Shown in pieces: positions 1 to 25,622 of a stretch of DNA of 44,414 nucleotides. The notes beneath the pieces were generated by a model, which did no database searches, was not told the origin of the DNA, and worked only from the letters and a program-made list of their open reading frames with translations. Location of the stretch: the IMG/VR virus record IMGVR_UViG_3300036860_000262, positions 1 to 44,414 of that record; one strand, given 5' to 3'. The stretch is from a virus. The translations under genes were made by a program, and so were the position numbers. Numbering within the stretch: the first letter of the stretch is position 1; every line of letters starts with the position of its first letter.

Positions 1-127
1 GGAGTGCCGCGCGGATCCGGGCGGCGCCGCCGCGGGCCTGCGCCTGCAGCTGCTGCACCTCCGCGGTGAGCGCATCAATCTCGACCTGTTGGCGCCCTTC
101 CGCGATTGCGATCCGGAGTCGCGCCTC
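1..127. repeat. Terminal overlap, left copy (circular closure)
   Basis: These 127 bases are repeated exactly at 44288-44414. The giant minus-strand reading frame runs through both copies in the same phase, so joining the ends gives one continuous gene. An exact overlap of 127 bases is the usual assembly k-mer length, so it most likely marks a circular or circularly permuted molecule rather than a biological terminal repeat. Unique length is 44,287 bp. Confidence 0.95.
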
Positions 128-3100
128 CGCTTCGAGCCAGCGCCGTTCGTAGTCCCGCTCGCGCTGCGACTCCTGGGCCGCGGCCTCGGCTTGTGTCCGC
201 GCGGCCTCGCCCTCAGCCTGTGCCTCGCGCACCGCGGCCGCGCCCTCGGCACGGGTCGTCGCGCGGGCCACGCGTACCGACGGCGCCGCGGCGGCGCGCA
301 GCCGCTGCAGCATCCGGATCTCCGCACGCAGGACCTCGTCGCGATGCTCCGCGGTGACGGCGTCCCGCGCCTGCTCGGCGAGCTGCACGGGGTCGGTGAG
401 CAGCGACCCGCGGCGCTCGACCATGCGCCGATCGGTCTCCTGCTCGATGACGGTGTCAATCGGGACGGCGCCGCTGAGCGCGTCGACGAGCGCCCGGCCG
501 TCGGCGAAGCCGAACAGCTCGGCGACGACGTCGGCCGGCAGACCGCCCAGCACGCTGTAAAGCGGCGGGACGCCTTTCGGGAGCGTCGCGAGAATGCCCT
601 TACCGAATTGCGCGACGAGGGCGTCCTTGTTGAACGTGGGGCGTGGCTGGACGTCCGGGAGCGGCGTGCCGTCGGGCTGTTGGCCGCGGCGCATGGCCGC
701 GAGTGCGCGATACACCGGCTGCTGCCGGATCTCGGCGTCGACCTCGGCGTGCACGGCTTGGCGCTCCTGGGTCCACGCCTCGGTCTGCTCGCGCGCGAGC
801 TCGCGCATGATCTGCGCCTGCAGGCGACCACGGGCCTGCGCGGAGGCCGCGGCGACCTTTGCGCGATAGCCGGTGAACTCGGCCTCGGGGACGCCGGCGG
901 CCGCCGCGTCGAGGAAGAGCGGCCGCACCTGGGCGTCGGCCTCCGCCGCGGCGATCGCGTCCTCGGTGGCGACCATGCGGTCCATCACCGCGCGCACGTC
1001 GTCGGTGAGCGGCACGCGGCTGCGACGCAGCTGCCGGTAGATCGCGTCCAACCAACTCCAGAACCGCGCAAAGAGCGGCTGCAGCTCCGGCGTCGGGGCC
1101 TTCCCTTCGGCCAGATAGTCCTCGAACGCGTCCGCAAAATCTTCGTGATGGGTGCGGCGCTGCTCGTCGGTCAGCGCGCGCCACGCGGCGACATCGCCGT
1201 CGAAGCCAAACCGGCGCAGCAGCGTGGCCATGTCGGCCCGCTCTTGATCGGTGGCCTTCGGCTGGAGGGCGAGCTCGGAGCGCAGCTCGAGAAACAGGTG
1301 GGCGAGTTCGTGGAGGAACGTCGAGCGATTGGCGCGCGGAAGGAGCTTGATGAGGCGCGTCAGAGGATCGAACGCGCCGAAGGGCTGATCGTCGCCCTGG
1401 GTTAGCGGCTTGGGACCGGTGCCTCGCGCGGCGTCGGTTCCGCCGCCCGCTTGGCCCTCGCCTCTCTGATCCGCTGACGCATCGCTTCGTGCTTCGCCAC
1501 GACCTGTTCGTCCGTCAGGCCGTAATCCGTGTCGTCCTGCTCGGTCAAGAAGTCGCCGGAATCGTTCGGCATCGGGCAGTTCCTCCTGGAGTCTAGCCGC
1601 GGTGGCTTCGAGCGACTCTCCTGCTCTAGTGTATCGCAGTGCAACAAGTTGCTCGCGGGTGATCTCGTGCGGTGCTGATCCGGTGTTGTCGTACATGCGC
1701 ACGGTGACGCGCGAATCGTCGGCGTACTCCGCCGAAATGCGCAGGAACGTCTCCTGCGCGCCGACGTGGTCCTCAGCCACGCGTTCGAGCGGAACGGTCC
1801 GCCCAGTTTTCTGTGCACGGTCTGCGACGCGCGGGACCGCCTCGTGAAACGGCAGGTGCACGTACACCAACTGCAGGTCGCGGCCGGTGCCGAGCGCGTC
1901 TTCGATGCGCTGCTTGGTCGACGCATAGCGCCCATGGACCCCATCACGCACGACGTCGGCGGCGTCGACCTCGGGCCGCATCACGCCCTTCTGAATCGTG
2001 CTCTTCCCTGATCCACCGCCACCCGCGAACAGGAGGACCGGGCCGGTCGGCTGCGCGGTCAACCGCTCTTCCCAGAGCCGATCGATGAACGCGCTCGCGG
2101 GATCGTGTGTCGCATCGCCCCACGCGCCGCGATCGGTGACGTAGTCCTCAGAGAGCTCGCGGACGTCGTCGACGTTGAGGATCTTCCCGCCCTGCGTGTC
2201 GGCGATCGCCGCGTAGGCCGCTTCCGCATCCGGCTGTGCCAGCCGGTCCGTGAAGCGGTCGTGCACCGCCTGCTCCTCCGCCTCGAGCTCGGTGTAGGGT
2301 GGCGCCTGAAAGAACTCCGTGCGCGGTTCGCCAGGGCGGCGCGCCGCTGGCACGTTCGCGAGGGTGTCCTGCAGCTGTCGCTCGAGCGCGGCGACGTCGC
2401 CCGCGGTCGGCGCACGCTGGGGCGTCGTCGAGGGTTCGACGAGCTGCGGCTTGGGATAGCGGATGCTGATGATCTCGCCGGTCGGCAGCGTCGCCGGCAG
2501 CTGCGCGTAGTCCGGCGTGAACGTCTCGGGCGCCGCAGGTGTCTCGGGCACCGGGATCCCGCGCGCCTCGAGCGTGCCGGCGGTGACGGTGGATCGATCG
2601 AGCGCGCCGCCGTCGACGTTGTAGAGCGCCATCGGCGGGCCGTCTGGCGTCTCTTGCCACCCAAGGAACGTGGCCCCTTCGCCGGCGTCGTTCCTCGCCA
2701 CGACCGTCTCGGGACTGGCGCCGATCGTCTCGCTCCCGGCGCCGATCGTCTCGGCCGCCGTGACGGCGCCGCCGCTGCGCGCGGCCCAGGCGCGGAATCG
2801 ACTGAGGGCCGTCTCACCCTCGCGCGCGGGCAACGCCTCAAACATCGAGGCGACGAGCGCGCCCTGCGTCGCCGCATCCTGCGGGGTGTAGCGCCCCGTC
2901 GCGGTGAGCCGCGCGGTGACGTCCTGGACAATCGCCTGGCGGTCGGCCGCGGCCTGCACCGGTGCCGCGCTCTCCTCGCGTACAGCGTTTTGCTGTACGG
3001 CCGCGGCCTGCGCCTCGACCTGCGCCTGCGTCTCGCGGGCGTTGGCGTGATCCGGGGAGAGCCGCAACTCCTGCGCGAAGAACGCCTCGTGCCCCGTGCC

Positions 3101-4558
3101 GGCCATTTGGGTGAGATAGCGCGCGGTGGGGATGGCGAGATCGCTGCTCGCCGGCGAGGCCATCGCGAGGCGGTACGCGTCGGGATCGCCGGTGAGCGCG
3201 AACGCCACCTGCGCGGGGTTCTCGCCCTTGGATTGGAAGTACGCCGTGAAGGTGTCGGCGGGCGCATAGACGTGCGTGAGGCCATCCTTGGCCGCCTGCT
3301 CGACGAGGGCGTGAAAGGCCTCGGGCGCGCGCTCGCGCGTTTTCGACGCCGCCGCGGCCGCGTGCAGGTCCTCGAGGACTTGCTGCTGCGGCGAGCCACC
3401 AGCCACGCGATTGAGCCCGTGGATCGCCGACGTTTGCAGACCGGTGGCCACGATCGTGGCGACGAGCGTCTCGGCCGCCGCACTCGGGCGTTCCCTGAGA
3501 TACTCCGTGAACGGCTTCTGTGTGTTCTCAGGCAGCACGACCCAGTCCGCCAGGTCCTGGAACACCGTCGCGATCTCTTCGCCGAGCACCTCCTCCTTGA
3601 GTTGGTGCGTGAGGAGCCGCCGGAACCCTGCGTTGGTCGCCAGGTCGCCGAACAGCTTGTTGGCGGGCGTCAGCTCCGTCGCCACTTCGACGGCGGCCTG
3701 AAAGGAGCCGTAGCCGACGGCCGTTTCGACCGACAGGCCTTTGTTGCGCGCCGTGCCGTAGGCGCCACCGAACGACAGCGCGCCCATCCCCGTCAGCATC
3801 GGCGCGGGACTGCGCGTGAGGAGCGAGAGGGGCAAGAGCAGCGCGTTCTGCGTCAGCGACTGCACCCCGCCAAGGACGCCGCGCTCGATGAGGCCTTCCG
3901 CCCCGGTGCGTCGCTGTTGTTGTTGCGAGACGGCCTGGAGATGCTGGCGAATCCCGGCCACGATGTCCGCGCCTGGCGCGGGCTGGGTGAAGGCGGCCGC
4001 GCGCGCGGCGCGCGCCTCAGCACGGGACATCCCGCCCGCGATGAGCGCCTGCTCGGCCTCACGGCCGCCTTCATGTTGCGCGACTTCGAGGAACCCCTGC
4101 AGGGTGCCGTAGAAGTTCGCGGATGCGCCGTAGAAGCCGGCTTTCGTCTCGCCCACGAGCTTGCCGCCGAATTGCAGGGTGCGCTCGAGCATCGACAGGG
4201 GCTCGTGGTCGTCCTGCGCGATCGCGGCGTGGGTGGGCTGCGACAACCAGGTGGCGAGCGCCGGCGTGTCGCGGATCACCGCCTCGTAGTCGCGCCCGTC
4301 GATCGTCGCGCGCTTGCGCACGTCGTCGAGGTTGCGCAGCACGACGTCGTCGGGCAGTCCGGTCTGCTGCGAGAGGCGCTGGGCGGCGGCGGCCCGGTCG
4401 GGCGTCGTGTCGAGCGCGGTCCGCTCGCTGACGCGCAGCTGCGCTTCGCGATCGCGCGCCTGCTGCTGCAGGAGGGCGTCATACGGGTTTGCCGTCGGCG
4501 CCGCCGTCCGCTCACCCGCGAGCCCTTGGAGCAGCGCGTCGTATTGGTTCGCCGGCAT
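1..4558 (-). CDS. Giant polyvalent ejection protein, N-terminal 1,519 residues
   Basis: This is the first part of a 2,418-residue protein that runs off the left edge and continues at 44287-41589. The ATG at 4558 overlaps the TGA of the preceding gene (TGATG). Hand translation shows an open frame with strong G/C third positions. An Ala/Gln-rich N-terminus is followed by a hydrophobic, Gly-rich stretch (about residues 225-300). A P-loop GGGGSGKST at about 846-854 starts a zeta-toxin-like or small-kinase domain. HELAH at 1083-1087, followed by a conserved Glu in FEDYL, marks a zincin metallopeptidase. A coiled coil fills about 1380-1510. Phage large polyvalent proteins combine such domains and are injected with the DNA. 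Its place directly after two smaller ejection-type proteins fits a gp16-like role. Individual enzyme activities are inferred from motifs only. Confidence 0.9.
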   Translation of the reverse strand, partial: MPANQYDALLQGLAGERTAAPTANPYDALLQQQARDREAQLRVSERTALDTTPDRAAAAQRLSQQTGLPDDVVLRNLDDVRKRATIDGRDYEAVIRDTPALATWLSQPTHAAIAQDDHEPLSMLERTLQFGGKLVGETKAGFYGASANFYGTLQGFLEVAQHEGGREAEQALIAGGMSRAEARAARAAAFTQPAPGADIVAGIRQHLQAVSQQQQRRTGAEGLIERGVLGGVQSLTQNALLLPLSLLTRSPAPMLTGMGALSFGGAYGTARNKGLSVETAVGYGSFQAAVEVATELTPANKLFGDLATNAGFRRLLTHQLKEEVLGEEIATVFQDLADWVVLPENTQKPFTEYLRERPSAAAETLVATIVATGLQTSAIHGLNRVAGGSPQQQVLEDLHAAAAASKTRERAPEAFHALVEQAAKDGLTHVYAPADTFTAYFQSKGENPAQVAFALTGDPDAYRLAMASPASSDLAIPTARYLTQMAGTGHEAFFAQELRLSPDHANARETQAQVEAQAAAVQQNAVREESAAPVQAAADRQAIVQDVTARLTATGRYTPQDAATQGALVASMFEALPAREGETALSRFRAWAARSGGAVTAAETIGAGSETIGASPETVVARNDAGEGATFLGWQETPDGPPMALYNVDGGALDRSTVTAGTLEARGIPVPETPAAPETFTPDYAQLPATLPTGEIISIRYPKPQLVEPSTTPQRAPTAGDVAALERQLQDTLANVPAARRPGEPRTEFFQAPPYTELEAEEQAVHDRFTDRLAQPDAEAAYAAIADTQGGKILNVDDVRELSEDYVTDRGAWGDATHDPASAFIDRLWEERLTAQPTGPVLLFAGGGGSGKSTIQKGVMRPEVDAADVVRDGVHGRYASTKQRIEDALGTGRDLQLVYVHLPFHEAVPRVADRAQKTGRTVPLERVAEDHVGAQETFLRISAEYADDSRVTVRMYDNTGSAPHEITREQLVALRYTRAGESLEATAARLQEELPDAERFRRLLDRAGRHGLRPDGRTGRGEARSDASADQRGEGQAGGGTDAARGTGPKPLTQGDDQPFGAFDPLTRLIKLLPRANRSTFLHELAHLFLELRSELALQPKATDQERADMATLLRRFGFDGDVAAWRALTDEQRRTHHEDFADAFEDYLAEGKAPTPELQPLFARFWSWLDAIYRQLRRSRVPLTDDVRAVMDRMVATEDAIAAAEADAQVRPLFLDAAAAGVPEAEFTGYRAKVAAASAQARGRLQAQIMRELAREQTEAWTQERQAVHAEVDAEIRQQPVYRALAAMRRGQQPDGTPLPDVQPRPTFNKDALVAQFGKGILATLPKGVPPLYSVLGGLPADVVAELFGFADGRALVDALSGAVPIDTVIEQETDRRMVERRGSLLTDPVQLAEQARDAVTAEHRDEVLRAEIRMLQRLRAAAAPSVRVARATTRAEGAAAVREAQAEGEAARTQAEAAAQESQRERDYERRWLEAEARLRIAIAEGRQQVEIDALTAEVQQLQAQARGGAARIRAAL
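1402..1572 (-). CDS. Nested 56-residue acidic protein inside the giant gene
   Basis: A short frame sits entirely inside the giant gene, one reading frame away. Its ATG at 1572 follows a consensus Shine-Dalgarno (AGGAGGA) at good spacing, and it ends with TAA at 1402. In exactly this interval the G/C third-position bias is in the nested frame (47 of 56 codons), not in the giant frame, which becomes Arg/Gly-rich. The product begins MPNDSGDFLTEQDD, is acidic at the N-terminus and ends in a basic helix and a Pro-rich tail. I do not recognise it. It lies between the kinase-like and metallopeptidase domains. Either it is a true nested gene in an inter-domain linker, or the neighbouring frames were once separate genes. 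Confidence 0.6.
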   Translation of the reverse strand: MPNDSGDFLTEQDDTDYGLTDEQVVAKHEAMRQRIREARAKRAAEPTPREAPVPSR

Positions 4559-6366
4559 CAGCGCGCGCTCCCGGCGGCCAGCTTCTGGAGATACAGCTTC
4601 AAGCGCTCGACGTCGTTGACCGGCCGTCCCGCGCGGCGTAACGCGTCATCGATCTGGCGCCGGTCGGTGGCGGGGATCTCCGCGGCGGCGAGACGATGGC
4701 GTGCCCAGTCGGGGAGATCGCGCGGCGCGACGTCGAAGACGCGCTGCGGGTCCCCCCCGACGTGGACCTCGATCAGCAGCGCGTCGGCGAGCCGCTCGAT
4801 CTCCTCGTTGGTGACCTTCTTCCCCGTCTGGCCCTGCAGCGCCGCCACGCGCGTATCGAGCACCGACAGGAAGCGATCGGCGCGGGCGCGGTCGCCACTC
4901 TTCCGTGCGGCCTCGCTGTCGCTCGTGTTGATGCCGACCTTGCGCAGCGCGCCCTCCGCGATCTGCTGGTTGGTGCGGAATCCGTCGAGGGCGTCGGCCG
5001 TCTTACTCTTGAGCAGCTGCTCGCGCTCGTTGAGGATGCGATTGACGTTCGCCTGTCCGACGTCCGGGAGCATCTTCAGGATCTCGCCGTCCGTCATCGC
5101 CCTGAGTTTGGCGGGATCCGCCTTCAGCTCGAGATACGTGTCGTACCCGCGTTCCTCGAGCTCGCGCTCGGCGCGCTGCGCCTGGGTGTAGGCGCGCGAT
5201 TCGCGCGACGCCGCGAGCGATTCTTTGTGCTCCGCTTCTCTGCGGTAGTAGTCGATGACCTTCAGCTGCTCCTCGCCCGGTGCCAGGCGGAACTCGGGCA
5301 TCAGCCGCACCGCGGACAGGGATTTGTTCGACGCGACGGCCGACCACAGCGTCGAGTCGGTCGCGTTCTTCCGCTCGCGCCGGGCATCGTCGACGCCCTG
5401 CTTGCGATCGCGCAGGTACTGCACCGCGGCGCGCATGGCTTTCGGGTCCTTCTGGAACTTCGCGCGTGCGGCGGCCTCCATCTTGTCGAGTTGAATCGGC
5501 GAGATGTCGTCGCCGACGTCGGGCGCGCTCTTCGCCCAGATCGCATCGGCGGCCGCGAACGCGCGCGCGTCCCTCGAGCCGTTCTCGAGCTTCACTGCCA
5601 GGTCGGCCCGCTGCGGCGCGGCGATGTCGTCGCGAACCTCCGTGAAGTACTCCTCGGCGGCGAGGTCGTCCTGCTTCGCGATGAGCTGCTCGATCACGCC
5701 GACGTGTGTGGCGGAGGCGAGCTTCTGCATCAGCGCGGTGCCGCCCTCGGGTCCGAGCTTCAGGCGCTCGGCGTAGCGCTCGATCGTGCGGCGCTGCATC
5801 GCGAGCTGCTCGGCGATCGCCGCCACGCGTTGATCGCCCGGCAGGTTGACAGCATGCGACGCCGCCTGCACCGAGCTCTCGAGCGTCGCGTTCACCTCGC
5901 CGACCTCGTACTGCGCGAACTGGCTCGAGGCGTGGCTGTCGTACTGGTCGGTGAACGACGCGCGTCGGCGATCGCGCAGCCGCGTCAGCGCGAGCTGCTG
6001 CTCGGGGTTTTTGGCCGCCTTGAGGATCTCGTCGGCCGACGTATCCCACTCGGTCGTGTACTGCTCGCGCAGGTCCATCGGCTCGCGGCCGCCCTTGTTC
6101 AGAGCGCCGCGCTGCGCGTCGTGCAAGTAGAGCGTGTCCAGGTCGTTGAACTGCCGCTCGGCGGTGAGCTCGGTGAGCTCGTTGGCGCGCTGCCGCTCGG
6201 CCATCTGCCGCTTGCGGACCTCGTTGAGGCCGGCGGAGCCGAGCCGCGCGAGCGTCTCCCCGAACTGCCCGCCGGCCGCGTCGGGGGTGAGCGCCGCGTC
6301 CTTCTTTTGCCCGCTGATCGGGTCGGTGCCGACCCGCTGCTGGCCGTAGGCTTCAACGCGCGGCAT
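4558..6366 (-). CDS. Internal virion (ejection) protein, gp15-like
   Basis: 602 residues, starting MPRVEAYGQQRVGTDP. The ATG overlaps the TAA of the preceding gene (TAATG), which rules out the longer upstream start. It is almost entirely helical and charged, with no signal peptide, cysteine cluster or membrane segment. N-terminal features (Pro-rich start, then long helices with a small Gly-containing linker followed by LREQYTTEWDTSADEI) resemble the second internal core protein of podoviruses, which is ejected into the host and helps form the DNA conduit. It lies between a gp14-like protein and the giant gp16-like protein, the usual ejection-protein order. The assignment rests on composition and position, not on a catalytic motif. 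Confidence 0.75.
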   Translation of the reverse strand: MPRVEAYGQQRVGTDPISGQKKDAALTPDAAGGQFGETLARLGSAGLNEVRKRQMAERQRANELTELTAERQFNDLDTLYLHDAQRGALNKGGREPMDLREQYTTEWDTSADEILKAAKNPEQQLALTRLRDRRRASFTDQYDSHASSQFAQYEVGEVNATLESSVQAASHAVNLPGDQRVAAIAEQLAMQRRTIERYAERLKLGPEGGTALMQKLASATHVGVIEQLIAKQDDLAAEEYFTEVRDDIAAPQRADLAVKLENGSRDARAFAAADAIWAKSAPDVGDDISPIQLDKMEAAARAKFQKDPKAMRAAVQYLRDRKQGVDDARRERKNATDSTLWSAVASNKSLSAVRLMPEFRLAPGEEQLKVIDYYRREAEHKESLAASRESRAYTQAQRAERELEERGYDTYLELKADPAKLRAMTDGEILKMLPDVGQANVNRILNEREQLLKSKTADALDGFRTNQQIAEGALRKVGINTSDSEAARKSGDRARADRFLSVLDTRVAALQGQTGKKVTNEEIERLADALLIEVHVGGDPQRVFDVAPRDLPDWARHRLAAAEIPATDRRQIDDALRRAGRPVNDVERLKLYLQKLAAGSAR

Positions 6367-6866
6367 TACGCGACTCCCTTGTTCGGCACCTGCGTGGTGC
6401 CCCACCCATACCGATCGAGCAGGAGCGACCCCGCCCCGCCGAGCAGCGTCGAGGCCGCGCCCCACCGGCCGGCGCTCTTGGCGATCTGGCCGCCCCTGCG
6501 CGCGTTCTCCGCTTGCGTCTTGTAGCCCTGCGCCTCGCGCTCCGCATTACGGCGGATCCGCTCCATGTCCGAGGCCCCGAGCCGCTCGGCGTCCTGGCGC
6601 ACGTCGACCGCGCTGCCGACGTCGACGTCGACGTGCTGCCCGCTGAAGCCGGCGCGCTGCGTGCCGATGAGGCCGCGCACCTGGCGACGAAACGCGCTGA
6701 CCTCCTCCTCGCCGCGGCGCGTCGCGTCGACGGCCTGCTGCTCGGCGACGCCGGCGTTGAAGTCGGCGATCTTCTTCTGGTCGTTCCCTGCTTTGACCTG
6801 CGAGCGCGCGCTCATCACCGTGCCGGCGATGAGTGACCCGATCGCGAGTGCCGTGCCCACAGCCAT
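6366..6866 (-). CDS. Internal virion protein, gp14-like
   Basis: 166 residues. The ATG at 6866 follows GGGAGGGTAGCG, a good ribosome site. The frame stays open further upstream, but the extension has no ribosome site and overlaps the tail gene. The N-terminus is a hydrophobic small-residue segment (ALAIGSLIAGTVM), followed by a long amphipathic helix rich in Gln, Ala and Arg and a second hydrophobic patch near the end (AASTLLGGAGSLLL). This layout is typical of the smallest podovirus ejection protein, which associates with the outer membrane at infection. It is first of a three-gene ejection block with one-base stop/start overlaps. Confidence 0.75.
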   Translation of the reverse strand: MAVGTALAIGSLIAGTVMSARSQVKAGNDQKKIADFNAGVAEQQAVDATRRGEEEVSAFRRQVRGLIGTQRAGFSGQHVDVDVGSAVDVRQDAERLGASDMERIRRNAEREAQGYKTQAENARRGGQIAKSAGRWGAASTLLGGAGSLLLDRYGWGTTQVPNKGVA

Positions 6867-6868: not shown

Positions 6869-9076
6869 CTACCCTCCCAGCCCGTAGTGCGGCAGCAGCG
6901 CCAGCACCGTGAGCGGCGTCGGGTCGGTGTGGCGGATGCACACGCGCCCGTGTTCGGTGAAGTAGGTCTGCGGCGTGAGCTCGACGCGGCCGGTGAAGGG
7001 CGTGTCGTTGACGTTCCAGAGCCGCGCGTCGACGGTGCGCAGGTGCGCGAAGTCCGGTCCGACCTGGAACCCGCGATAACTCGCCTCGAGCTCGAGACCG
7101 ACGCGGATGATGCGCTTCTGCCGCTCGCGCAGCGCGGGATCGCCGTCGAGACTGAGGGACTCCAGGTCACACGTGATCGGGAGCCCGACGTGCACGACGG
7201 AGGCCGCGGCCGGCAGCGTGATCGCGCCGGACGCGCCGATCGTGAACGTGCCGGCGAGCGCGACGCCGTCGGCGAACACCCGGACGACCTTGTTACGGAG
7301 ATGCGAGAGGCCGGTGATCGTCCCGGTCGCGACGCCGTCGTAGGTGACCGACGCATCGAGGAAGCACGCGTCGACGACGTCGGCGTAGTCGCGCGACGTC
7401 AAACGCTCGATGTAGCGCACCGTGTCGAGGTCGCCATCGCCGTCGACGTCGATCGATCGGTTGACCACGACGTAGACCGCGTCTTCCTGGTCCTCGGGGA
7501 TCGCACACACCTGCTCGAACGATCCGTCGGTCGTGTGCCGGTGCCAGCCCCACACGTCCTCGTCGGGGATGTAGGTGAGCCCGAGCAGCGCGCCGTCGTT
7601 GCGCACGCACCACACGACGGCGTCCGGCACCATCGCGAAGTCCATGTCGACGATCGACTTACCCTGCTTGAACAGGTGGTCCGAGAAGATCGTCAGGTCC
7701 CGGCCACTGAGCCCCTGCGTGCGCTCCTGATAGGAGAGCTCGCGCAGCACGGTGCCGCGGCCCTGGACGAACAGCAGCTTCTCGCCGTAGACGACTGGTG
7801 TGACGAACGCGCTGCCGACAAAGCCCTGCTGCAGCGGGTTGATCGTGGTGGGCGTCAGCACGTCGTCGGCGTCGCCCTGAATCACCCACTCGCCCATGTC
7901 GGTGAGCATCACGAGCTGCTTGAGGCTCACCAGATGCACGACCGGCTGCAGGTACTGGCTCACGGTGCGCCAGGTGATCGCGTCGTCATCCTGGAGCGGC
8001 GATCGCCGCGAGAAGTTGCTCACCAGGCCGACGCGCGACGCGTGCACGATGTCGCGCGCGTTGTGCGTGCCGGCGAAGACGCGCCGCTGGTTGTGCGTGA
8101 CGCTGACGGCCGGATAGTCGTTGGCCGCGTTGAAGAGGATCCGCGGCTTGGGGGGCGTGAACGCCAGGTCCGGCACCTGGCCGATGTCGCGGAAGGTCAC
8201 AATGCCGGTCGCCGTGCCGATGTAGCCGAACGTGCCGTTCGCGAACGCGTCCTCGTACACGTTGTATTCGGCGGCGCCGGTGACGGCCGACCAGCTCACC
8301 ACATTCGGCGCCGCGGGCGTGCCCTCGGCGGCCCCGACGATCGTGGTGACGGACGACGCGACCGACTCCTCGAGGGTGGTGGCGTCGACGGCCGTGATCA
8401 CGTAGCTGAGCGTGCGCGTGCCCGCGGCGCCCGCCACCGAGCCCGGCCCCGCCGGCGCAGCGACCGTGGGCGCGGTGCTGATCGTGCGCAGCACCCACCG
8501 CTGTTGACCCTGATACACGAGCTCCATCGGCGGATAGTTCAGGTGCGTCAGCGTGACGACGGAGCCCTGCTGCGACCAGCAGAGCGGCGCCGGGTTCTGA
8601 AACGCGCCCGCGGGATAGGGCGTCGGGATCTCGAGAATGGTGCCGGTGAGCGGATACCAGAACGTCGCGTTTGGCGGCGCGTTGCCGGTGGTCGCCGCAA
8701 TGCAGTAGTAGTTGACGCCGGCGCTGACCACCAGGTCGCCCGGCACGTACGGCGTCGCGCCGTTGTACGCCGGGACGCCCGACACCGTGACGCGCGCGCC
8801 GCGGCGATAGAACCGGAAGTAGTTGTCGCTCGCCTCGATGATGAAATTCTGATCCGCGGCCGCGAACACGAACTTGAACAGGAACGTGACCCCGGCAGTC
8901 TTCGCGGTGGCCACGTAGCGGAACCCGGCCCGGTTCGCCGCGCCGCCGGTGCGACGCACGAGGAAATTCAGCAGCGTGCGCGCGGCCTGCTGATAGCGCT
9001 GGATGTCCCCGCGCGCGCTGAGGCCTGGCGCGAGCTCGCCGCCGGCGAACGCTCGAACGATGGCAGGCTCGCCCAT
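6869..9076 (-). CDS. Tail nozzle/tube protein with carbohydrate-binding-like module
   Basis: 735 residues. It starts two bases after the TGA of the preceding tail gene. The opening pattern (FAGGELAPGLSARGDIQRY, then a Leu-Asn-Phe and GGAANRAGFRYV) is the familiar start of podovirus tail nozzle or tubular proteins. It is followed by a beta-rich body with the typical propeller-like repeats of N-R-R-V-F-A and F-V-Q-G-R. Around residues 100-140, YVPGDLVV ... NYYCIAATTG ... FWYPL resembles a carbohydrate-binding family 5/12 fold. The stretch DVDGDGDLDTVRY is a calcium-loop-like motif, common before the TxRYIERL segment of this family. It should form the tail tube that carries DNA through the envelope. 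Confidence 0.8.
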   Translation of the reverse strand: MGEPAIVRAFAGGELAPGLSARGDIQRYQQAARTLLNFLVRRTGGAANRAGFRYVATAKTAGVTFLFKFVFAAADQNFIIEASDNYFRFYRRGARVTVSGVPAYNGATPYVPGDLVVSAGVNYYCIAATTGNAPPNATFWYPLTGTILEIPTPYPAGAFQNPAPLCWSQQGSVVTLTHLNYPPMELVYQGQQRWVLRTISTAPTVAAPAGPGSVAGAAGTRTLSYVITAVDATTLEESVASSVTTIVGAAEGTPAAPNVVSWSAVTGAAEYNVYEDAFANGTFGYIGTATGIVTFRDIGQVPDLAFTPPKPRILFNAANDYPAVSVTHNQRRVFAGTHNARDIVHASRVGLVSNFSRRSPLQDDDAITWRTVSQYLQPVVHLVSLKQLVMLTDMGEWVIQGDADDVLTPTTINPLQQGFVGSAFVTPVVYGEKLLFVQGRGTVLRELSYQERTQGLSGRDLTIFSDHLFKQGKSIVDMDFAMVPDAVVWCVRNDGALLGLTYIPDEDVWGWHRHTTDGSFEQVCAIPEDQEDAVYVVVNRSIDVDGDGDLDTVRYIERLTSRDYADVVDACFLDASVTYDGVATGTITGLSHLRNKVVRVFADGVALAGTFTIGASGAITLPAAASVVHVGLPITCDLESLSLDGDPALRERQKRIIRVGLELEASYRGFQVGPDFAHLRTVDARLWNVNDTPFTGRVELTPQTYFTEHGRVCIRHTDPTPLTVLALLPHYGLGG

Positions 9077-9078: not shown

Positions 9079-12000
9079 TCAGCGCCCCGTGATCCAGTCG
9101 GGCTCAGTGTCGGTCGGCCGTTGCCGCTCCTGCTCGTTGGCGTGCAGCACCTTGTCCTGCGGCAGCAGGTCGCGGTATTTCGCGAGCAGCGCGTCGGCGT
9201 CCTTCTGATCTTTCCCGAGCGGCTTCGCGATCGCCGCCGCCAGGCGATAGATCAGGCACTGCCGGAACACCGCGTCCGTCACGCGGCCCGGGCACGGCAC
9301 GCGTCGGAGGTATTCGACCCGCACCGGATCGGCCGCCTGCAGGAACTCCGCGGGCTCGTTCGTGTAGAGCAGGTCACGCGGCGTGTCGTCCTGCAGCACC
9401 TGGAACGCGATCGGCGTGAACGACGACTGCCGCGCGCGGCCGCCGGTGACGTCGAGCACGCGCAGGACGCGCAGGCAATCCGCCGGCAGCGCGTAGCTGT
9501 AGGTCCAGTCAGGATTGACCGGAGCGTCGGCCGTGCCGGCGACGAGCGTCAGCCCGGCGCTCGCGCTGTAGGTGCGCGCAAAGTTCCACGCGTACGCCCG
9601 CAGCACCGCGTCGACGATCGTCTTGTAGACCAGCCGGCACGTGAAGGCCTCCTGCGACGTGTCCGTCGACAGGTCGGCGAGCTGCACCGTGATGCCCGCT
9701 TCACTGAGCGCCAGGTTGCAGAGGCGCGTCGAGCTCGCGACGCAGTCCGCCGCGATGTCGGTGGTCAGGTCGCCCGGGTCGAGCGGGTTCGGTTCCGCCG
9801 GCTCCTCGACGTCGGGGTCGATCGTCGTCGGTTCGGTCCAGCCGGCCGGCTTGCGTGAATCAGCCGGGACCGGCACGAGCTCGGTGTTGATCGACCACCC
9901 GTTATTGCCCGCGGTCGCCGAGCCGTAGAACCCGAAGTACTGGTAGACCACGCCGTTCGCGTTGAGCGCCGTGCCGACCGTGAACGCGTCGACGCCGCCG
10001 GCGGTGAGGCCGAGCGTGGCATCGTTGGCGCCGCTCGAGGGGTTCTCGCTGTTGGTCCCGGTGTGACTCGGATCGCGGTGGCGCACGTTGCCCGAGCCGA
10101 CGCCGCCGACGATCGCCCACATGGGGCGCAGGCCCGTCGCGCCAATCGTGATCGTGCGGCTCCCGGACCCGTCGCCGGTGTAGGTGCCCTTGAACCACAC
10201 CTTGGCCTGGTCGGCGTAGCTGTTGCCGTCGTTCGTGCGGAACAAGAGAAACGGGTAGTTCGTGACGCTGTTGAAGAACGCGCTCGCGAGCGTCAGCAGC
10301 CCCGTGCCGAAGGTGATCGAGGCCGCGATCGTGGTCGCGCCAGAGATCAACGACATCGCGTCGGCGGCGTGCGCGGCTCCTTTCCAGTGCACGGCGTCCG
10401 TCGTGGTCGTGTCGTAGTTCTCGCGCCAGACGAGCGCGAACTCGGCGAGGAAGTCGACGTCGTCGAGCAGATGCGTCTGCGGCGCGTTGAGTGAGGTGCC
10501 GAGCGCGACGCCCGCGCGCGAGTAGCGCGCCGCGGGATCACAGAACGCGATGTACTGGTAGGTGGTGCCCGTCACGTTGTACTGCGCGCCGGCGCCGCCC
10601 AGGCGCACGCGGAACTGCATCTGCTGATCCGCGTTCGGGTCCGCCTGCGTGTACGTCAGGTCCTGATCGACGTCCGCAATGCCGATCTCGAAGGAGATGC
10701 CCTGGTTGTGCGAGATGTGTGACCCAAGCAGCGACGACCACACGAGCGGGCCGCCGGCCGACCCCGTCAGCGGCCGAATCAGGAGCAGGATCGGCGGCGC
10801 CTTGAACGTGATGTCCTGCCCGAGACTGTTGCCGGCGTACGTCCCGCCGACGATGATGACGGGCCCGATCGGCAGCGCCTGCATCGCCCACGGGGTGTAC
10901 GGCACCCACGCGCTATGCACGCCCCCGACCGGCTGCGGCGGCACGGGATCCGCGTCGGCCTCGGGGTCCTCGTTCGGAAAGACATCTTCCTCGCCGAACG
11001 TGCCGATCACTTCGACCGTCCCGACGAGGACCGCGAGGGTTGCCAGCGTCGCGTCCGCGGCTTTGGTGAATCGGAGCTCGACGCCGGTGCCGGCGGGAAT
11101 CGGCGCCGTCAACGCCGCCGGCGCGTAGATCACGCCCTTCCAAGCGAGCGTGCCCGTTTCGACGATCGTCGTGTCGACGGGTGCGCCGGCGCCGATCTTG
11201 TAGCCAAGCGCCCCGTTGACCACGCCCGCGCGTTTCGTGTAGGCATTGACCTGCAGGCCCACCCACCCGATCGCGCCCGGGAGCGCCTCGACCTGGCGCG
11301 GCACGTCCGTCGTCACGGCCGCCAGGGCGCCGCTCGTGCTGCTCGTGATGCCGGCAAACGCGATCCCGTCCGGGCGCTGCATCAGCACGCGGAAATCGCC
11401 TGTCCAGTTGCCCGAGTGACTCGACGCGAACGCGTTCGCCTTCAGGCGCACCAGACGCGAGCCGTGAATCCAGTCGATCGGGTCCGTCAGCCGGCGCCAG
11501 AACAGCGGCTCGAGGCCGGGGACGTGATTGGTGCCGTTCTGCAGCGCCTTGTAGCGCACGCCGGCGGCCGTCTTGACGACGTCGCCGGTGACGTAGGCGG
11601 TGATGCTGCTCCAGGTCGGCACCGCCGGGTCCTTGGTCGACGGGATCTTCGCGATGATGTAGTTGTCGAACGCGAGCGTGCCCGAGGTCGCGACCGCCTG
11701 CTCTTTGCCGATGCGCGACTCCGAGTGATAGCGGTTGCCGAGCACGCCGCCGGCGGCCCGCGAGCCCGCGCACAGGAGCGTGTGATTGAGATAGACCGAG
11801 CAGGTGATCAGGTCGTTGGTGCCGTCGACATCGAAGACCACGTCGACCAGGTACCGCTGCCCCACGACGAGCGTCGCGAACGTGCCCTGCAGCGTGTTCA
11901 CCGCCAGGGCCGACCAGTTGCGGAAAGCGATCTGCAGCGACGGGAGGACCTCGATTGAAAAGCCGGTGCCGTTGGTCGAGAAATTGAACCCGCGCCAGAG

Positions 12001-12705
12001 GCCGACGGCATCGCTCGGCGCGGCGCCGACCACCGTGAAGTAGAAGCGCTCCCAGTGCCCGCGCTGTGCGAGGGTCGAGAGCGCATACGCGGTGTACTGC
12101 GTGCCCGTGCCCGTCGCGCCGGTCGACCCCGCGTAGCCGTCGATGCCCGACGCGCCGCCGCGCGAGATGAGCAGGCTGTTAGCCGCCGACGCCAGGCCCT
12201 CGAGCGGATCGCCGGCGTTGCTCAGATCCCAGCCGGTCAGCGCGACGCGCTGCGGAATCAGCGCCGGTTCCGTTTCCTCGACGACGCCGGACGGGGGCAG
12301 GCTCTCGGGCAGCGGCGAGTAGGCGACCTGCGCGACCCAGTAGAACTTGGTGTTCGAGCCGAAGATCCACCAGCCGCTCGAGCGCGTGAACGTCGCGACG
12401 TCGCGCGGGAACGTGTTGCTCGTGGTGAGCCACGGGCTCGTGATGTAGCCGGCGCCGGTCGTCGGGACCGGATCGCCGACTTCCAGAATAGGGAGCGCTG
12501 GCGGATACGCCGCGGCGTCGATCGCGAACTCAATCGCGGCGCCCTCGGGCGCCCGCAGAATCCCGATCTTGCCGCCGCCCGGGTACACGAGCACCGCGCC
12601 GGTGAGCGTCGTCGGGGTCAGCGACGCCAGATCGGCGGCGAGCTGCTCCGCGAGCGCGCGGTCGCGCAGGTGGATCGTGTATTCGAGAATCTGCGTCTTC
12701 GCCAT
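9079..12705 (-). CDS. Tail protein: lectin-like N-terminal part fused to head-tail adaptor domain
   Basis: 1,208 residues. Residues from about 984 to the end form a complete podovirus head-tail adaptor (gp4/gp11-like). Visible marks are STRLCNLALSEAG, a Tyr and Leu-rich helix, AYAWNFART, then SYALPADCLRVLRV and a C-terminal FRQCLIYRLAAAIAKPL. This domain is normally a separate protein of about 200 residues that starts at the first motif. Here about 983 residues precede it without a stop or an internal start codon near the junction. The front part is beta-rich and holds a jelly-roll/LamG-like region (about 160-350), a CBM5/12-like module (SSITAYVTGDVV ... YKALQNGTN ... LFWRRL) and further beta domains. 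These suggest surface or polysaccharide binding. Both halves likely sit at the tail. Confidence 0.8.
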   Translation of the reverse strand: MAKTQILEYTIHLRDRALAEQLAADLASLTPTTLTGAVLVYPGGGKIGILRAPEGAAIEFAIDAAAYPPALPILEVGDPVPTTGAGYITSPWLTTSNTFPRDVATFTRSSGWWIFGSNTKFYWVAQVAYSPLPESLPPSGVVEETEPALIPQRVALTGWDLSNAGDPLEGLASAANSLLISRGGASGIDGYAGSTGATGTGTQYTAYALSTLAQRGHWERFYFTVVGAAPSDAVGLWRGFNFSTNGTGFSIEVLPSLQIAFRNWSALAVNTLQGTFATLVVGQRYLVDVVFDVDGTNDLITCSVYLNHTLLCAGSRAAGGVLGNRYHSESRIGKEQAVATSGTLAFDNYIIAKIPSTKDPAVPTWSSITAYVTGDVVKTAAGVRYKALQNGTNHVPGLEPLFWRRLTDPIDWIHGSRLVRLKANAFASSHSGNWTGDFRVLMQRPDGIAFAGITSSTSGALAAVTTDVPRQVEALPGAIGWVGLQVNAYTKRAGVVNGALGYKIGAGAPVDTTIVETGTLAWKGVIYAPAALTAPIPAGTGVELRFTKAADATLATLAVLVGTVEVIGTFGEEDVFPNEDPEADADPVPPQPVGGVHSAWVPYTPWAMQALPIGPVIIVGGTYAGNSLGQDITFKAPPILLLIRPLTGSAGGPLVWSSLLGSHISHNQGISFEIGIADVDQDLTYTQADPNADQQMQFRVRLGGAGAQYNVTGTTYQYIAFCDPAARYSRAGVALGTSLNAPQTHLLDDVDFLAEFALVWRENYDTTTTDAVHWKGAAHAADAMSLISGATTIAASITFGTGLLTLASAFFNSVTNYPFLLFRTNDGNSYADQAKVWFKGTYTGDGSGSRTITIGATGLRPMWAIVGGVGSGNVRHRDPSHTGTNSENPSSGANDATLGLTAGGVDAFTVGTALNANGVVYQYFGFYGSATAGNNGWSINTELVPVPADSRKPAGWTEPTTIDPDVEEPAEPNPLDPGDLTTDIAADCVASSTRLCNLALSEAGITVQLADLSTDTSQEAFTCRLVYKTIVDAVLRAYAWNFARTYSASAGLTLVAGTADAPVNPDWTYSYALPADCLRVLRVLDVTGGRARQSSFTPIAFQVLQDDTPRDLLYTNEPAEFLQAADPVRVEYLRRVPCPGRVTDAVFRQCLIYRLAAAIAKPLGKDQKDADALLAKYRDLLPQDKVLHANEQERQRPTDTEPDWITGR

Positions 12706-16996: not shown

Positions 16997-18789
16997 CAGG
17001 CCGCCTGACTGCCCACGCTCCGCAGCATCGCGTCCAGCGCGGTGCCGCCGCCCTGCATGGGCGTCTTGCCCAACGACTGCGCCGCGGCCGCCGTGCTCTT
17101 CGCCTGCTCGGCCTGCTGCGCGGCCGCGGCCGCCTGTTGTTCGGCGTCAGCGAGTTGCTGCGCCTCGTCGTTCGTGCGCGTCAGCTTCGGGTTCGTACCG
17201 AGCATGTCGGCGTAGTCGTCGACCGCCTGGAAGGCGTTGACCTTGTGGCGCACCATCGGGAACGTCTCGGCGAGCGCGATCGTCGATTGCAGGAACCGGT
17301 CGTGTCCGACCACACCCACCAGCTTCTGCGCCTGGGCGAGGATCGAGACGTACTCGACCTTGAGCTCCATGTTGAGCAGCTCCTCGGGCGGCTCGGGAAT
17401 CGCGCCGGCGGCGAGCATGATCGCGAACGTGCGATCGATCAGCCGATCGAGCAGCTCGTCGTTCAAGCGCTCGAGCACCGGGCCGAGCGCGAGCAGCTTC
17501 TCTTCGTGGCGCTCCTCGACCTCCCGCGCGGTGATCGGTTGTCCGCCCCGCGCGGAGTACTCCGACATCGCGAGCATCAGAAACAAATCTTCGTAAAACG
17601 CGCGGCGCACGCGATCGCGCGTCTCGCCCATGTCCATCACCAGGTACTGCAGGCCCTCGAGCCGCACTTCGTGGATCGGGCTGAGGCCGCGACCCGTGCC
17701 GCCGCGTTCGTCCTGCACGTACGTGATGCCACCAGGCACCAGGCTCACCTTCTCGGTGCGGAGCTCGGGCGGCCCTTTGAGCGGCGGATCGATCGCTTTG
17801 GCGATGGCCTTGGCTTTCTGCCGCTGCTGCAGCTGCAGCCCCTTGGTGTCGCCGAGCGCGGTCATCCCCGGGCTGTCGGTGCCGTAGGTGTCTTCGCCCG
17901 TGACGTCCCACCGCGGCACGAGCACCGGGAAGGTGCGGAAGCCCCGCACGGCGAGCACCGCTTCGCTGTTGTGGAAGTCCGCGTCGGCCCGGCCCATCTC
18001 GTAGTGACACGAGTGAAACGGCATCGTGTAGCGCGCCTCGATCCGCGTGCGATCGAGCTCGCGGTTCGGGCTGACGAACCAGGTCACGTCGACGGGCGAC
18101 GTGTAGTTCGCCATCTCGTACTGGTTGCGCACCTGCGACGAGACGCGGGACCAGTCAATATCGCGCGGGTTGCCGTTCACCATCGCGAAGCGCTCGACCG
18201 CCTGCTCCACGGTGAGCTGATAGTCGCGCGAGAACGTGTTGGGGAGGCCGCGCTCGTCGAGACCGGCGACGAAGCTGCCGATCGGATAGCTGTAGAAGCG
18301 GACCAGGTCCTTCGCGTCCTCGAGCGCGCCGATCGCGCCCGTGCCGAACACGCCCATGTCGCCGTAGAGCGTGGGCAGAACGTTGTACAGGTTCGATTTC
18401 TGGAGCACGTCGAGCATCCGCCGCGTGACGGTGAAGAGCCACTCTTTGACCGGCGGGTAGTCGTTCAGCTCGCGGTCCGGCGTCGACAGCTTCATCCACG
18501 GTCGCGCCGGCGACGTCAGCCCGGCGTGCAGGCCGCTCGCGAGCGTGCGCGCGGCGAATCGCGGCGCCGAGTCGATGATGTTCTGCGAGCGCCGATCGCC
18601 GCGGTTGCGGTCGGTGATCATGAACCGCGTGCGCCGCGGGAAGAAGTAGTCGGCGAGCTCTTTCCAATGCGCGTCGAACGTCGAGCGCTCGGAGAGCAGC
18701 GCTTGCTTCTGCTGCTCGTAGCGCTGCCGCTTCGTCAACCCTGACGGGTGATTCGACACCGCCGCCGTCGCGCCGTAGCCCGCCGCCAT
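16996..18789 (-). CDS. Portal (head-to-tail connector) protein
   Basis: 597 residues. Its sequence is that of the podovirus head-tail connector family: LKELADYFFPRRTRF, SGLHAGLTSPARPWMKL, GDMGVFGTGAI and FYSYPIGSF in the N-terminal half, then DPPLKGPPEL and the helical EEPPEELL-type C-terminal region. The last 80 residues are Gln/Ala-rich, as in the barrel or crown of other portals. Twelve copies should form the DNA entry and exit ring, contacting terminase outside and the adaptor domain on the tail side. The start ATG overlaps the stop of the small gene before it. Confidence 0.93.
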   Translation of the reverse strand: MAAGYGATAAVSNHPSGLTKRQRYEQQKQALLSERSTFDAHWKELADYFFPRRTRFMITDRNRGDRRSQNIIDSAPRFAARTLASGLHAGLTSPARPWMKLSTPDRELNDYPPVKEWLFTVTRRMLDVLQKSNLYNVLPTLYGDMGVFGTGAIGALEDAKDLVRFYSYPIGSFVAGLDERGLPNTFSRDYQLTVEQAVERFAMVNGNPRDIDWSRVSSQVRNQYEMANYTSPVDVTWFVSPNRELDRTRIEARYTMPFHSCHYEMGRADADFHNSEAVLAVRGFRTFPVLVPRWDVTGEDTYGTDSPGMTALGDTKGLQLQQRQKAKAIAKAIDPPLKGPPELRTEKVSLVPGGITYVQDERGGTGRGLSPIHEVRLEGLQYLVMDMGETRDRVRRAFYEDLFLMLAMSEYSARGGQPITAREVEERHEEKLLALGPVLERLNDELLDRLIDRTFAIMLAAGAIPEPPEELLNMELKVEYVSILAQAQKLVGVVGHDRFLQSTIALAETFPMVRHKVNAFQAVDDYADMLGTNPKLTRTNDEAQQLADAEQQAAAAAQQAEQAKSTAAAAQSLGKTPMQGGGTALDAMLRSVGSQAA

Positions 18790-19073
18790 CAGTAGCCGCC
18801 CATGAACCCAGATCGGATCGGCTGAAACGCGGCACCCGCGGTGCCCGAGGCGACGCCGCGTTGCGTGCCGGCGATGGTCGTCGCCGGCGGCGTCGCGACC
18901 GTGGCCTGCTGCGCGCGCAGCTTCGCGACCAACTTGCCCATGAAGGGTCCACGGTCCTGGAGCCGCTTGAGCGCCTCGTCGAGCGGCAGACGCGTGCCGG
19001 CGCCGGCGTCAGCGCCAGGTGTGAGCCCCGTCGTTGCTTTCATCACGCCGAGTAAACTGCGTGCGCCGCCCAT
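18789..19073 (-). CDS. Small protein before portal, 94 residues
   Basis: Starts MGGARSLLG, one base after the neighbouring gene's stop, and ends in a stop overlapping the portal start. There is a helical middle (LPLDEALKRLQDRGPFMGKLVAKL) and a Gly/Ala/Thr-rich end finishing FMGGY. Similar small genes occur at this place in podovirus late operons. I cannot give a function. Confidence 0.7.
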   Translation of the reverse strand: MGGARSLLGVMKATTGLTPGADAGAGTRLPLDEALKRLQDRGPFMGKLVAKLRAQQATVATPPATTIAGTQRGVASGTAGAAFQPIRSGFMGGY

Positions 19074-19074
19074 G

Positions 19075-19272
19075 TCACTCTCCGTTCGCCAGTTTCTCGA
19101 TTTGCCTGGTGTTCAACGTGATCGTGTTCGGCCCGGTGTACGGCGGCATCGGCTCGACCGTGTGGAGCGTCACGTTGCAGTAGTCGGTGCCCGGCTGCAC
19201 GCTGTCGACGATGCACGGCACGTTGACGCGATCGCCCTCTTGCACCAGCTGTCCGTTCTTGTCGTGTGGCAC
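19075..19272 (-). CDS. Small beta-type protein, 65 residues
   Basis: GTG start with a strong AGGAGGGG site seven bases upstream. It reads MPHDKNGQLVQEGDRVNVPC, then a short beta sequence with two cysteines (VPCIVDSV ... DYCNVTLHTVE). The pattern G-D-x-V-x-V-P-x-x-V looks like a small SH3-like barrel, as in many short phage late genes. Function unknown. Confidence 0.75.
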   Translation of the reverse strand: MPHDKNGQLVQEGDRVNVPCIVDSVQPGTDYCNVTLHTVEPMPPYTGPNTITLNTRQIEKLANGE

Positions 19273-19285
19273 GTTCGGTCCCCTC

Positions 19286-19738
19286 CTACGCCGCGAGGCG
19301 CTTCTGCCAGGTCGACTCGATCGGCGCGTAGCCGCGGCGCCGGTAGAACTCTCCGAGCCGGACGTTGCCGACCGGCTGAATCATCTGCAGCCAGATCGCG
19401 CCCTGCGCGCACGCCCAGGCCTCGCCGACCTGCAGCAGCCGCACGCCCAACGTGCCCCGCCGCCACTGCGGATCGAGCCACCACATCAACTCGACGCCGG
19501 CGAGCTCACCACTCACCGGGAGCGGCGTGAGCGCGATCCCGAGCATTCCGACGATCGCGTCGGCGCCGGCGACGACGACCCAGCAGCCCCCCTGCTCGAG
19601 CAGCACCGCGATGCACGCGCCCTGCGCCTCCGGGTTCGGCGTCAGCAGGCCGCGGTAGCCGCTCTCGGCGATGAACTGCAGCCCCATCCGCACCAGGTCC
19701 GCCGTGTCGGCCGCCGTCGCCGGGCGAATGCGCGTCAC
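19286..19738 (-). CDS. GNAT-family acetyltransferase-like protein
   Basis: 150 residues from a GTG that overlaps the previous stop (GTGA). It opens with TRIRPATAADTADLVRMG, the first strand and helix of GNAT enzymes. Then come IVGMLGI, ELMWWLDPQWRRGTLGVRLL (the acetyl-CoA loop region, somewhat divergent from Q/RxxGxG/A) and a late GEFYRRRGYAPIE strand. Such proteins are common in podovirus late operons beside the portal. The substrate is unknown. Confidence 0.8.
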   Translation of the reverse strand: MTRIRPATAADTADLVRMGLQFIAESGYRGLLTPNPEAQGACIAVLLEQGGCWVVVAGADAIVGMLGIALTPLPVSGELAGVELMWWLDPQWRRGTLGVRLLQVGEAWACAQGAIWLQMIQPVGNVRLGEFYRRRGYAPIESTWQKRLAA

Positions 19739-19932
19739 ACACAGACCCACACGACAAACGCCGCGAGCGCGGCGACGGGGACGAACGGCGCCCACCAGGA
19801 GCCCAGGAGCCAGCCACAGAACGGCAGCCACACGCGCACCAGATAGGCGAACACGAGCTGCTCCAGGACCCAGCCAGCCCCGTGTCGCGGGGCCTCGTCC
19901 TCGAGCGCCTCGTCGACGTCCCAGCGATTCAC
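19735..19932 (-). CDS. Small membrane protein, possible holin
   Basis: 65 residues. GTG start overlapping the preceding stop (GTGA). A charged N-terminal 20 residues is followed by two hydrophobic segments (LVFAYLVRVWLPFCGWLLG and PFVPVAALAAFVVWVCV). Two membrane spans in a tiny protein would suit a holin, but it lies far from the lysis genes at 38.6-39.6 kb. I therefore call it only a small membrane protein. Confidence 0.65.
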   Translation of the reverse strand: MNRWDVDEALEDEAPRHGAGWVLEQLVFAYLVRVWLPFCGWLLGSWWAPFVPVAALAAFVVWVCV

Positions 19933-20722: not shown

Positions 20723-20733
20723 CAGTGGGCGCC

Positions 20734-22598: not shown

Positions 22599-22641
22599 CT
22601 GGATCAGGTTGTCGGCCGAACCGCGGCGCGCGCCTGCGCTA

Positions 22642-23212: not shown

Positions 23213-23223
23213 GGATGGGCGAA

Positions 23224-25619: not shown

Positions 25620-25622
25620 GGC

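What the first reader, a model, noticed from the sequence alone, without database searches (positions are those of the whole stretch)
1..4558. 2,418-residue ejection protein joining a P-loop kinase and a HELAH metallopeptidase
One open frame from 4558 across the circular join to 41589 carries GGGGSGKST at about 846-854 and HELAH at 1083-1087, plus a coiled coil and hydrophobic segments. Phage polyvalent proteins with zeta-like and zincin domains are thought to act in the host right after injection. Both domains in the ejection slot suggest an injected effector.
Basis: partly seen in the sequence, partly recalled or inferred. Interest (0 to 1): 0.8.

Follow-up and report, generated by a model that had tools for sequence, protein, structure and literature searches.

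The report
Phage ejection protein carrying zeta-type kinase
This phage encodes a giant protein, probably injected with its DNA, in which a kinase resembling bacterial toxins that poison cell-wall building blocks sits in a slot where related phages carry other enzymes; the protein class is known, but this cargo in this kind of ejection protein appears to be new.

Summary
The circular 44,287-bp podovirus encodes one 2,418-residue frame with GGGGSGKST at 846-854 and HELAH at 1083-1087. It is the Bbp10/PHROG 9880 giant protein of Bordetella phage BPP-1-like podoviruses. It lies between nozzle/internal-virion genes and a tail fibre, where T7 has gp16. HELAH is not special to this protein: the zincin (CLCA_X type) is kept in all 53 aligned relatives. 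The kinase is the unusual part. It is a zeta-type kinase of the gonococcal ng_zeta1 subclass (pLDDT 90.6; Z 22.8 over 222 residues to 6eph) and keeps the residues aligned with the base Asp56, Walker Lys115, Arg175 and Arg181. It sits in a hypervariable slot between an LPD22 N-terminal block and the zincin, where relatives carry ADP-ribosyltransferases, PBECR nucleases, GNATs, RadC or GGDEF. Only one relative (L108) has the same kinase in the same place. The C-terminal domain weakly resembles T7 gp16-C. Best reading: a polyvalent ejection protein that delivers a UDP-sugar kinase into the host. Injection, substrate and processing are inferred. The class is described (Iyer 2017), so this is a new variant of a known kind.

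The parts
1..4558 (-). giant ejection protein, residues 1-1519 (of 2,418)
   Evidence: PHROG 9880 E 3e-165
41589..44414 (-). giant ejection protein, remainder to the stop; 44288-44414 repeats 1-127, so residue 1478 onwards reads from 44414
   Evidence: PHROG 9880 E 2e-198
4172..4420 (-). LPD22 domain, residues 47-129
   Evidence: Pfam PF18834 E 5e-20; also in most named relatives
2717..4501 (-). conserved N-terminal block, about residues 20-614
   Evidence: profile found in 83 of 97 relatives
1559..2251 (-). zeta-type kinase domain, residues 770-1000 (cargo)
   Evidence: Pfam Zeta_toxin 2.5e-5; AF2 pLDDT 90.6; 6eph Z 22.8
2168..2170 (-). Asp797, predicted catalytic base (ng_zeta1 Asp56)
   Evidence: 41/41 Asp in A5; profile alignment to 6eph
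1997..2023 (-). Walker A GGGGSGKST, residues 846-854 (Lys852 = ng_zeta1 Lys115)
1817..1819 (-). Arg914 (ng_zeta1 Arg175)
   Evidence: 41/41 Arg
1799..1801 (-). Arg920 (ng_zeta1 Arg181)
   Evidence: 40/41 Arg
1373..1546 (-). Gly/Arg/Asp-rich linker, residues 1005-1062
   Evidence: composition
869..1375 (-). zincin-type metallopeptidase domain, about residues 1062-1230
   Evidence: alignments A1 and A7; homologous to the Bbp10 700-1000 seed of CLCA_X (PMC3650047)
1298..1312 (-). HELAH, residues 1083-1087
   Evidence: HExxH in 53/53
1142..1147 (-). His-Glu 1138-1139, second conserved helix, candidate third zinc ligand
   Evidence: invariant in 53/53
41589..44258 (-). C-terminal domain, residues 1530-2418, T7 gp16-C-like
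43050..43064 (-). GGYVP motif, residues 1928-1932, aligned with the GxYVPxVYD motif of gp16
4558..6465 (-). upstream internal virion protein gene, PHROG 10475 'endolysin', start/stop overlap with the giant gene
   Evidence: no Pfam domain
6869..9076 (-). nozzle-type tail protein (PHROG 376)
   Evidence: homologue upstream of the giant gene in L108 and L003
40768..41589 (-). collagen-repeat fibre-like protein directly downstream

Best explanation
The protein is a gp16-like ejection protein of a BPP-1-type podovirus built as a polyvalent protein. An N-terminal LPD22 block, an invariant zincin and a C-terminal gp16-C-like hub form the fixed delivery chassis (homology shown; function inferred). 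A zeta-type kinase of the ng_zeta1 subclass is inserted in the chassis's swappable cargo slot (shown by comparison). The protein is packaged and ejected ahead of or with the DNA (inferred from gene order and family). The kinase, in place or freed from its linkers by the zincin, phosphorylates UDP-activated cell-wall sugars in the infected cell (inferred from conserved catalytic residues and fold), halting new peptidoglycan synthesis early in infection.
For: Kinase: Pfam Zeta_toxin above its cut-off. Profile match to ng_zeta1 6eph at 8e-23, with the next PDB hit at 1e-3. AF2 pLDDT 90.6; Foldseek E 3e-11; Z 22.8, 2.5 A over 222 of 231 residues. Asp797, Lys852, Arg914 and Arg920 align with ng_zeta1 Asp56, Lys115, Arg175 and Arg181. 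Slot: gap of 21 to 2,038 residues between fixed blocks, filled by ART, PBECR, GNAT, RadC, GGDEF or LPD domains in relatives. L108 has the same kinase in the same slot; L151 has it after the zincin. Chassis: PHROG 9880; HExxH in 53/53. Ejection slot: nozzle, internal virion protein, giant, fibre, as in T7 gp12-gp17. CTD: top two rows of the structural second look are a core protein of mature T7 (Z 7.0) and a phiM1 ejectosome protein (Z 6.8); hhalign P 0.003 versus 0.6-0.8 for reversed controls. Feasibility: from published kinetics (kcat 200/s, KM 0.23 mM) and a 30-60 uM UNAM pool (PMC5923241), about four injected molecules would turn over the standing pool in minutes.
Against: No proteomics or activity data for any member were found. 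The CTD/gp16 match is below the Z at which chance arrangements are excluded. No PDB zincin appeared in the structural search. In T7 the part of gp16 N-terminal to its membrane segments is periplasmic; a kinase there would lack ATP and UDP-sugars, so cytosolic delivery is an extra assumption. ng_zeta1 Lys59 is Arg800 here and Asn75 has no clear counterpart, so substrate choice may differ. The kinase is very rare in the family.
Confidence: 0.58

Rival explanations
1. An ejected zeta-fold kinase, but acting on another small molecule (for example NAD, as the zeta-fold effector AvrRxo1 does, or a nucleotide), so it rewires metabolism or signalling rather than wall synthesis.
For: AvrRxo1 is the second structural family in the list (Z 11.8). 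Lys59 and Asn75 of the UNAM-binding site are not kept as such. A NAD role for AvrRxo1 is from general knowledge.
Against: ng_zeta1 is far closer (Z 22.8, profile E 8e-23), and the Asp/Arg/Arg site and the upstream catalytic Asp are shared with it.
Confidence: 0.17
2. The kinase acts late, in the producing cell, where this late structural protein is made in bulk, and helps lysis by starving wall synthesis; injection is incidental.
For: The gene sits in the structural block with an overlapping start; ng_zeta1 expression lyses E. coli (PMC5923241).
Against: The kinase is fused to the virion-type chassis, and relatives place unrelated effectors in the same slot, which fits delivery rather than lysis.
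Confidence: 0.12
3. The giant protein is a lysin, as several annotations say ('crystallin beta/gamma motif', 'lysis protein').
For: Annotations in related records and PMC9239159.
Against: No muralytic Pfam domain in the window protein; separate lysis genes in relatives; gene order and CTD point to ejection.
Confidence: 0.05
4. The inserted kinase is an inert or decaying passenger.
For: Rare within the family.
Against: All seven invariant and the near-invariant catalytic positions are intact despite about 30-40% identity to relatives.
Confidence: 0.08

Closest known systems
Bbp10 of Bordetella phage BPP-1 and PHROG 9880 ('crystallin beta/gamma motif' giant proteins)
   Same: LPD22 N-terminus, HExxH zincin, long C-terminal domain, position after nozzle/internal virion genes and before tail-fibre genes
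   Different: Bbp10 carries a PBECR1 nuclease in the slot; the window carries a zeta-type kinase
Polyvalent proteins (Iyer et al. 2017, PMC5512222)
   Same: Several unrelated enzymatic domains in one phage polypeptide with an LPD and a zincin, encoded among virion genes
ng_zeta1 toxin of Neisseria gonorrhoeae (6epg, 6eph, 6epi; PMC5923241)
   Same: Kinase fold, catalytic Asp upstream of the P-loop, Walker Lys and the Arg pair
   Different: Embedded in a virion-type protein; kinase model spans ng_zeta1 27-266 only, so no OB domain; Lys59 is Arg; about 20% identity
CLCA_X zincins (Lenart et al. 2013, PMC3650047)
   Same: Window zincin is homologous to the Bbp10 700-1000 stretch used to define CLCA_X
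   Different: HExxHxxxE instead of the stated HExxHxxxD consensus, as also in Bbp10 itself
T7 gp16 internal virion protein
   Same: Same gene slot; weak structural and profile similarity of the C-terminal domain to gp16-C
   Different: No N-terminal transglycosylase found; about 1,100 residues longer with kinase and zincin
N4 virion RNA polymerase
   Same: Giant ejected protein with a zincin domain and a C-terminal region needed for packaging (PMC5512222); weak CTD alignment Z 4.3
   Different: Cargo is an RNA polymerase

Membership tests
Bbp10 / PHROG 9880 giant protein | significant match over most of the length | tested here: met
   E 3e-165 and 2e-198
Polyvalent proteins | unrelated enzymatic domains plus LPD in one polypeptide | tested here: met
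   LPD22 and Zeta_toxin, zincin
Polyvalent proteins | encoded among virion genes | tested here: met
Polyvalent proteins | packaged in the virion and delivered to the host | not testable with these tools
   needs virion proteomics and delivery assays
ng_zeta1-type zeta kinase | Pfam Zeta_toxin above gathering score | tested here: met
   24.2 bits against 22.3
ng_zeta1-type zeta kinase | fold | tested here: met
   Z 22.8, 2.5 A, 222 residues
ng_zeta1-type zeta kinase | base Asp N-terminal to the P-loop, Walker Lys, two active-site Arg | tested here: met
   Asp797, Lys852, Arg914, Arg920
ng_zeta1-type zeta kinase | phosphorylates UDP-sugars | not testable with these tools
   needs enzyme assay
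epsilon/zeta toxin-antitoxin system | adjacent antitoxin gene | not tested
   no antitoxin search was made; not filed as a TA system
CLCA_X zincin | homology to the defining seed | tested here: met
   40% identity to the Bbp10 stretch in A1
CLCA_X zincin | HExxHxxxD consensus | tested here: inconclusive
   HExxH met; the D position is E here, but also in the seed Bbp10
CLCA_X zincin | zincin fold | tested here: inconclusive
   On relative L108, three strands then HExxH helix then HE helix as expected; no zincin row in the structural search of the 1,195-residue model
T7 gp16-type ejection protein | gene slot between nozzle/internal virion genes and tail fibre | tested here: met
T7 gp16-type ejection protein | gp16-C fold | tested here: inconclusive
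   Z 7.0 and 6.8 as the top two rows; hhalign P 0.0028 against 0.6-0.8 reversed

The most novel reading that the evidence does not exclude
The virion injects a handful of active UDP-MurNAc/UDP-GlcNAc 4'-kinases fused to the DNA-ejection hub, shutting off peptidoglycan precursor supply within minutes of entry. The slot that carries it is a general cargo bay that podoviruses of this type reload with different effectors.
Probability: 0.35. Interest if true: 0.75.

Novelty: new variant of a known kind. Interest (0 to 1): 0.55.

Why it matters
If right, it is a virion-borne enzyme that attacks cell-wall precursors from inside at the start of infection. I found no earlier report of a zeta-type kinase in a podoviral ejection protein in the papers searched. 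It also shows a fixed ejection chassis with one hypervariable slot. That makes it possible to test, with cultured relatives, whether ejection proteins deliver enzymes to the cytosol and whether the conserved zincin frees them.

Tried and rejected
Single-sequence searches with the kinase found nothing in IMG/VR or genome contigs, and nothing at E 0.01 in phages or plasmids. One phage hit from a wider query allowed an alignment that then reached 47 relatives. A combined kinase-plus-zincin alignment misaligned the two domains and was dropped. A profile of the zincin against PDB sequences gave only a non-significant Spartan match (E 0.6); the CTD profile gave nothing. Foldseek of the 1,195-residue model against PDB gave no significant match; no zincin was listed, but a single domain can be missed in so large a model. 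The lysin annotation was considered and rejected. The idea that HELAH marks this protein as special was rejected because it is family-wide. Searches for published virion proteomics of Bbp10 relatives found none in the library.

Full report
OBSERVATION. The window is an IMG/VR virus record. Its two ends are the same 127 bases, the mark of a circular assembly, so the genome is 44,287 bp. Removing one copy joins the minus-strand frame from 4558 across the ends to 41589: 2,418 codons and a stop. GGGGSGKST lies at 846-854 and HELAH at 1083-1087. The frame starts inside the stop of the upstream gene (TGATG). In this GC-rich genome long chance frames abound on both strands, but this one is supported by PHROG 9880 (E 3e-165 and 2e-198) and by 43 homologous phage records.

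WHAT THE PROTEIN IS. It is the giant protein of BPP-1-like podoviruses, called Bbp10 in BPP-1 and annotated elsewhere as 'crystallin beta/gamma motif', 'lysis protein' or hypothetical. Upstream in the window lie TerL, portal, protease, capsid, adaptor, nozzle and a 635-residue protein of PHROG 10475. Downstream lies a collagen-repeat fibre-like protein. In T7 the same positions hold gp12 to gp17, with the giant protein in the place of gp16 (gp12 and gp13 from general knowledge). In relatives, neighbouring genes are annotated internal virion proteins and structural lysozyme.

THE ZINCIN IS FAMILY-WIDE. All 18 named relatives have an HExxH in the same domain. In an alignment of 53 sequences the HExxH residues and a His-Glu pair about 50 residues later are invariant. 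Lenart et al. 2013 (PMC3650047) used Bbp10 residues 700-1000 as one seed of the CLCA_X zincin family; the window aligns with that stretch at 40% identity. In the AlphaFold2 model of the relative L108, three strands precede the HExxH helix and a second helix carries the His-Glu pair. This matches the zincin layout described for polyvalent proteins (PMC5512222). A PDB fold search of that large model listed no zincin, so the fold is supported by family and layout, not by a structural hit.

THE KINASE. Residues 868-958 pass the Pfam Zeta_toxin cut-off, and 778-950 match the gonococcal ng_zeta1 toxin (6eph) at 1e-4 by sequence alone. Iterative searching gave 47 viral relatives. Forty-one aligned sequences share seven invariant positions. 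A profile of them matches 6eph at 8e-23, while the next PDB sequence outside that toxin is at 1e-3. The AlphaFold2 model (pLDDT 90.6, pTM 0.88) matches 6eph with Z 22.8 at 2.5 A over 222 of 231 residues. Rocker et al. 2018 (PMC5923241) name Asp56 as the likely base, Lys115 as the catalytic P-loop lysine, and Arg175 and Arg181 as the positive patch facing the phosphates. These align with Asp797, Lys852, Arg914 and Arg920 of the window protein. The base lies N-terminal to the P-loop, as in that rewired subclass. Lys59, which touches UNAM, is Arg800 here, and Asn75 has no clear partner, so the exact sugar is open.

A SWAPPABLE SLOT. A conserved N-terminal block (LPD22 and about 570 residues) was found in 83 of 97 relatives. 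The distance from its end to the zincin varies from 21 to 2,038 residues. Pfam scans of the slot found PBECR1 (BPP-1), ART-PolyVal, PBECR5 with or without a GNAT, GNAT and LPD23 in named phages. In 60 slots from IMG/VR they found ART-PolyVal 18 times, PBECR5 7, GNAT 6, LPD3 4, LPD23 3, RadC 3, PBECR3 2, GGDEF 1 and Zeta_toxin 1. The one zeta hit is L108, a 2,285-residue relative collinear with the window along its length, with nozzle and adaptor genes upstream. L151, same family, carries the kinase after the zincin at a contig end. None of 78 other relatives has it. Elsewhere the kinase occurs in other polyvalent proteins (L107, L112, L114, L115, L137) and as short genes just before terminase and portal (L110, L120, L145).

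THE C-TERMINAL DOMAIN. Residues 1530-2418 have no PDB relative by sequence. In the structural second look at the L108 model, the two best rows of 285 chains were core proteins of mature T7 (9jyy chain I, Z 7.0, 222 residues) and the phiM1 ejectosome (8vb2, Z 6.8, 229 residues). The T7 chain's length and numbering fit gp16. Z below 8 can be chance, so a second test was made: hhalign against a T7-type gp16 alignment gave P 0.0028, centred on a shared GGYVP / GxYVPxVYD motif, against 0.82 and 0.61 for reversed controls. I read this as suggestive of distant homology to gp16-C, the cytoplasmic DNA-binding hub of the T7 ejectosome (PMC8954989).

MECHANISM. Shown: the domains, their conservation, the slot and the gene order. 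Inferred: packaging, ejection, cytosolic location, UDP-sugar phosphorylation and zincin processing. In PMC5512222 the MPTase domains are proposed to release the other domains of polyvalent proteins, and N4 virion RNA polymerase is a precedent for a giant ejected enzyme with a zincin. With ng_zeta1 kinetics (kcat 200 per second, KM 0.23 mM) and 30-60 uM UNAM, about four molecules in a 1-fL cell would handle roughly 130 UNAM per second, so a pool of roughly 18,000-36,000 molecules would turn over in a few minutes. This is my own estimate; it assumes the same kinetics and a gp16-like copy number. A topology problem remains: gp16 residues before its membrane segments are periplasmic in T7, where a kinase would have no ATP.

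VERDICT. Polyvalent proteins, CLCA_X zincins and zeta-type kinases in mobile-element and MuF proteins are all described (PMC5512222, PMC3650047). An ng_zeta1-type kinase in a BPP-1-type ejection protein was not found in the papers searched. New variant of a known kind.

Noticed in passing
window 9079-12705 (-): 1,208-residue adaptor-type protein: only residues 990-1208 match the usual tail protein PHROG 394, leaving a 990-residue N-terminal extension of unknown nature.
   Followed up: no
window 29724-30410 and 33588-34364 (-): Phage integrase and YqaJ recombinase, so the virus is probably temperate.
   Followed up: no
L151 1539-1650 (protein residues): Same giant-protein family, but the kinase lies after the zincin, at a contig end: the cargo seems able to change slot.
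   Followed up: partly
L107 3897-9134: 1,746-residue polyvalent protein of a proteobacterial contig with zincin-like HEALH before a related kinase, the reverse order.
   Followed up: partly
L022 (Xanthomonas phage Soumapaz), giant protein just after residue 1125: Extra sequence inserted between the HExxH helix and the second zincin helix, absent from the near relative CP2; looks ADP-ribosyltransferase-like by eye, no Pfam match.
   Followed up: no
L023 6231-7967: A GGDEF (diguanylate cyclase) domain in the cargo slot of a relative.
   Followed up: no
L110, L120, L145: Short stand-alone genes for the same kinase family sit just before terminase and portal genes.
   Followed up: partly
L004, record PQ492659.1: Limnohabitans phage DC33 is filed under Inoviridae, yet encodes this podoviral giant protein in the usual gene order; likely a taxonomy slip.
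   Followed up: no
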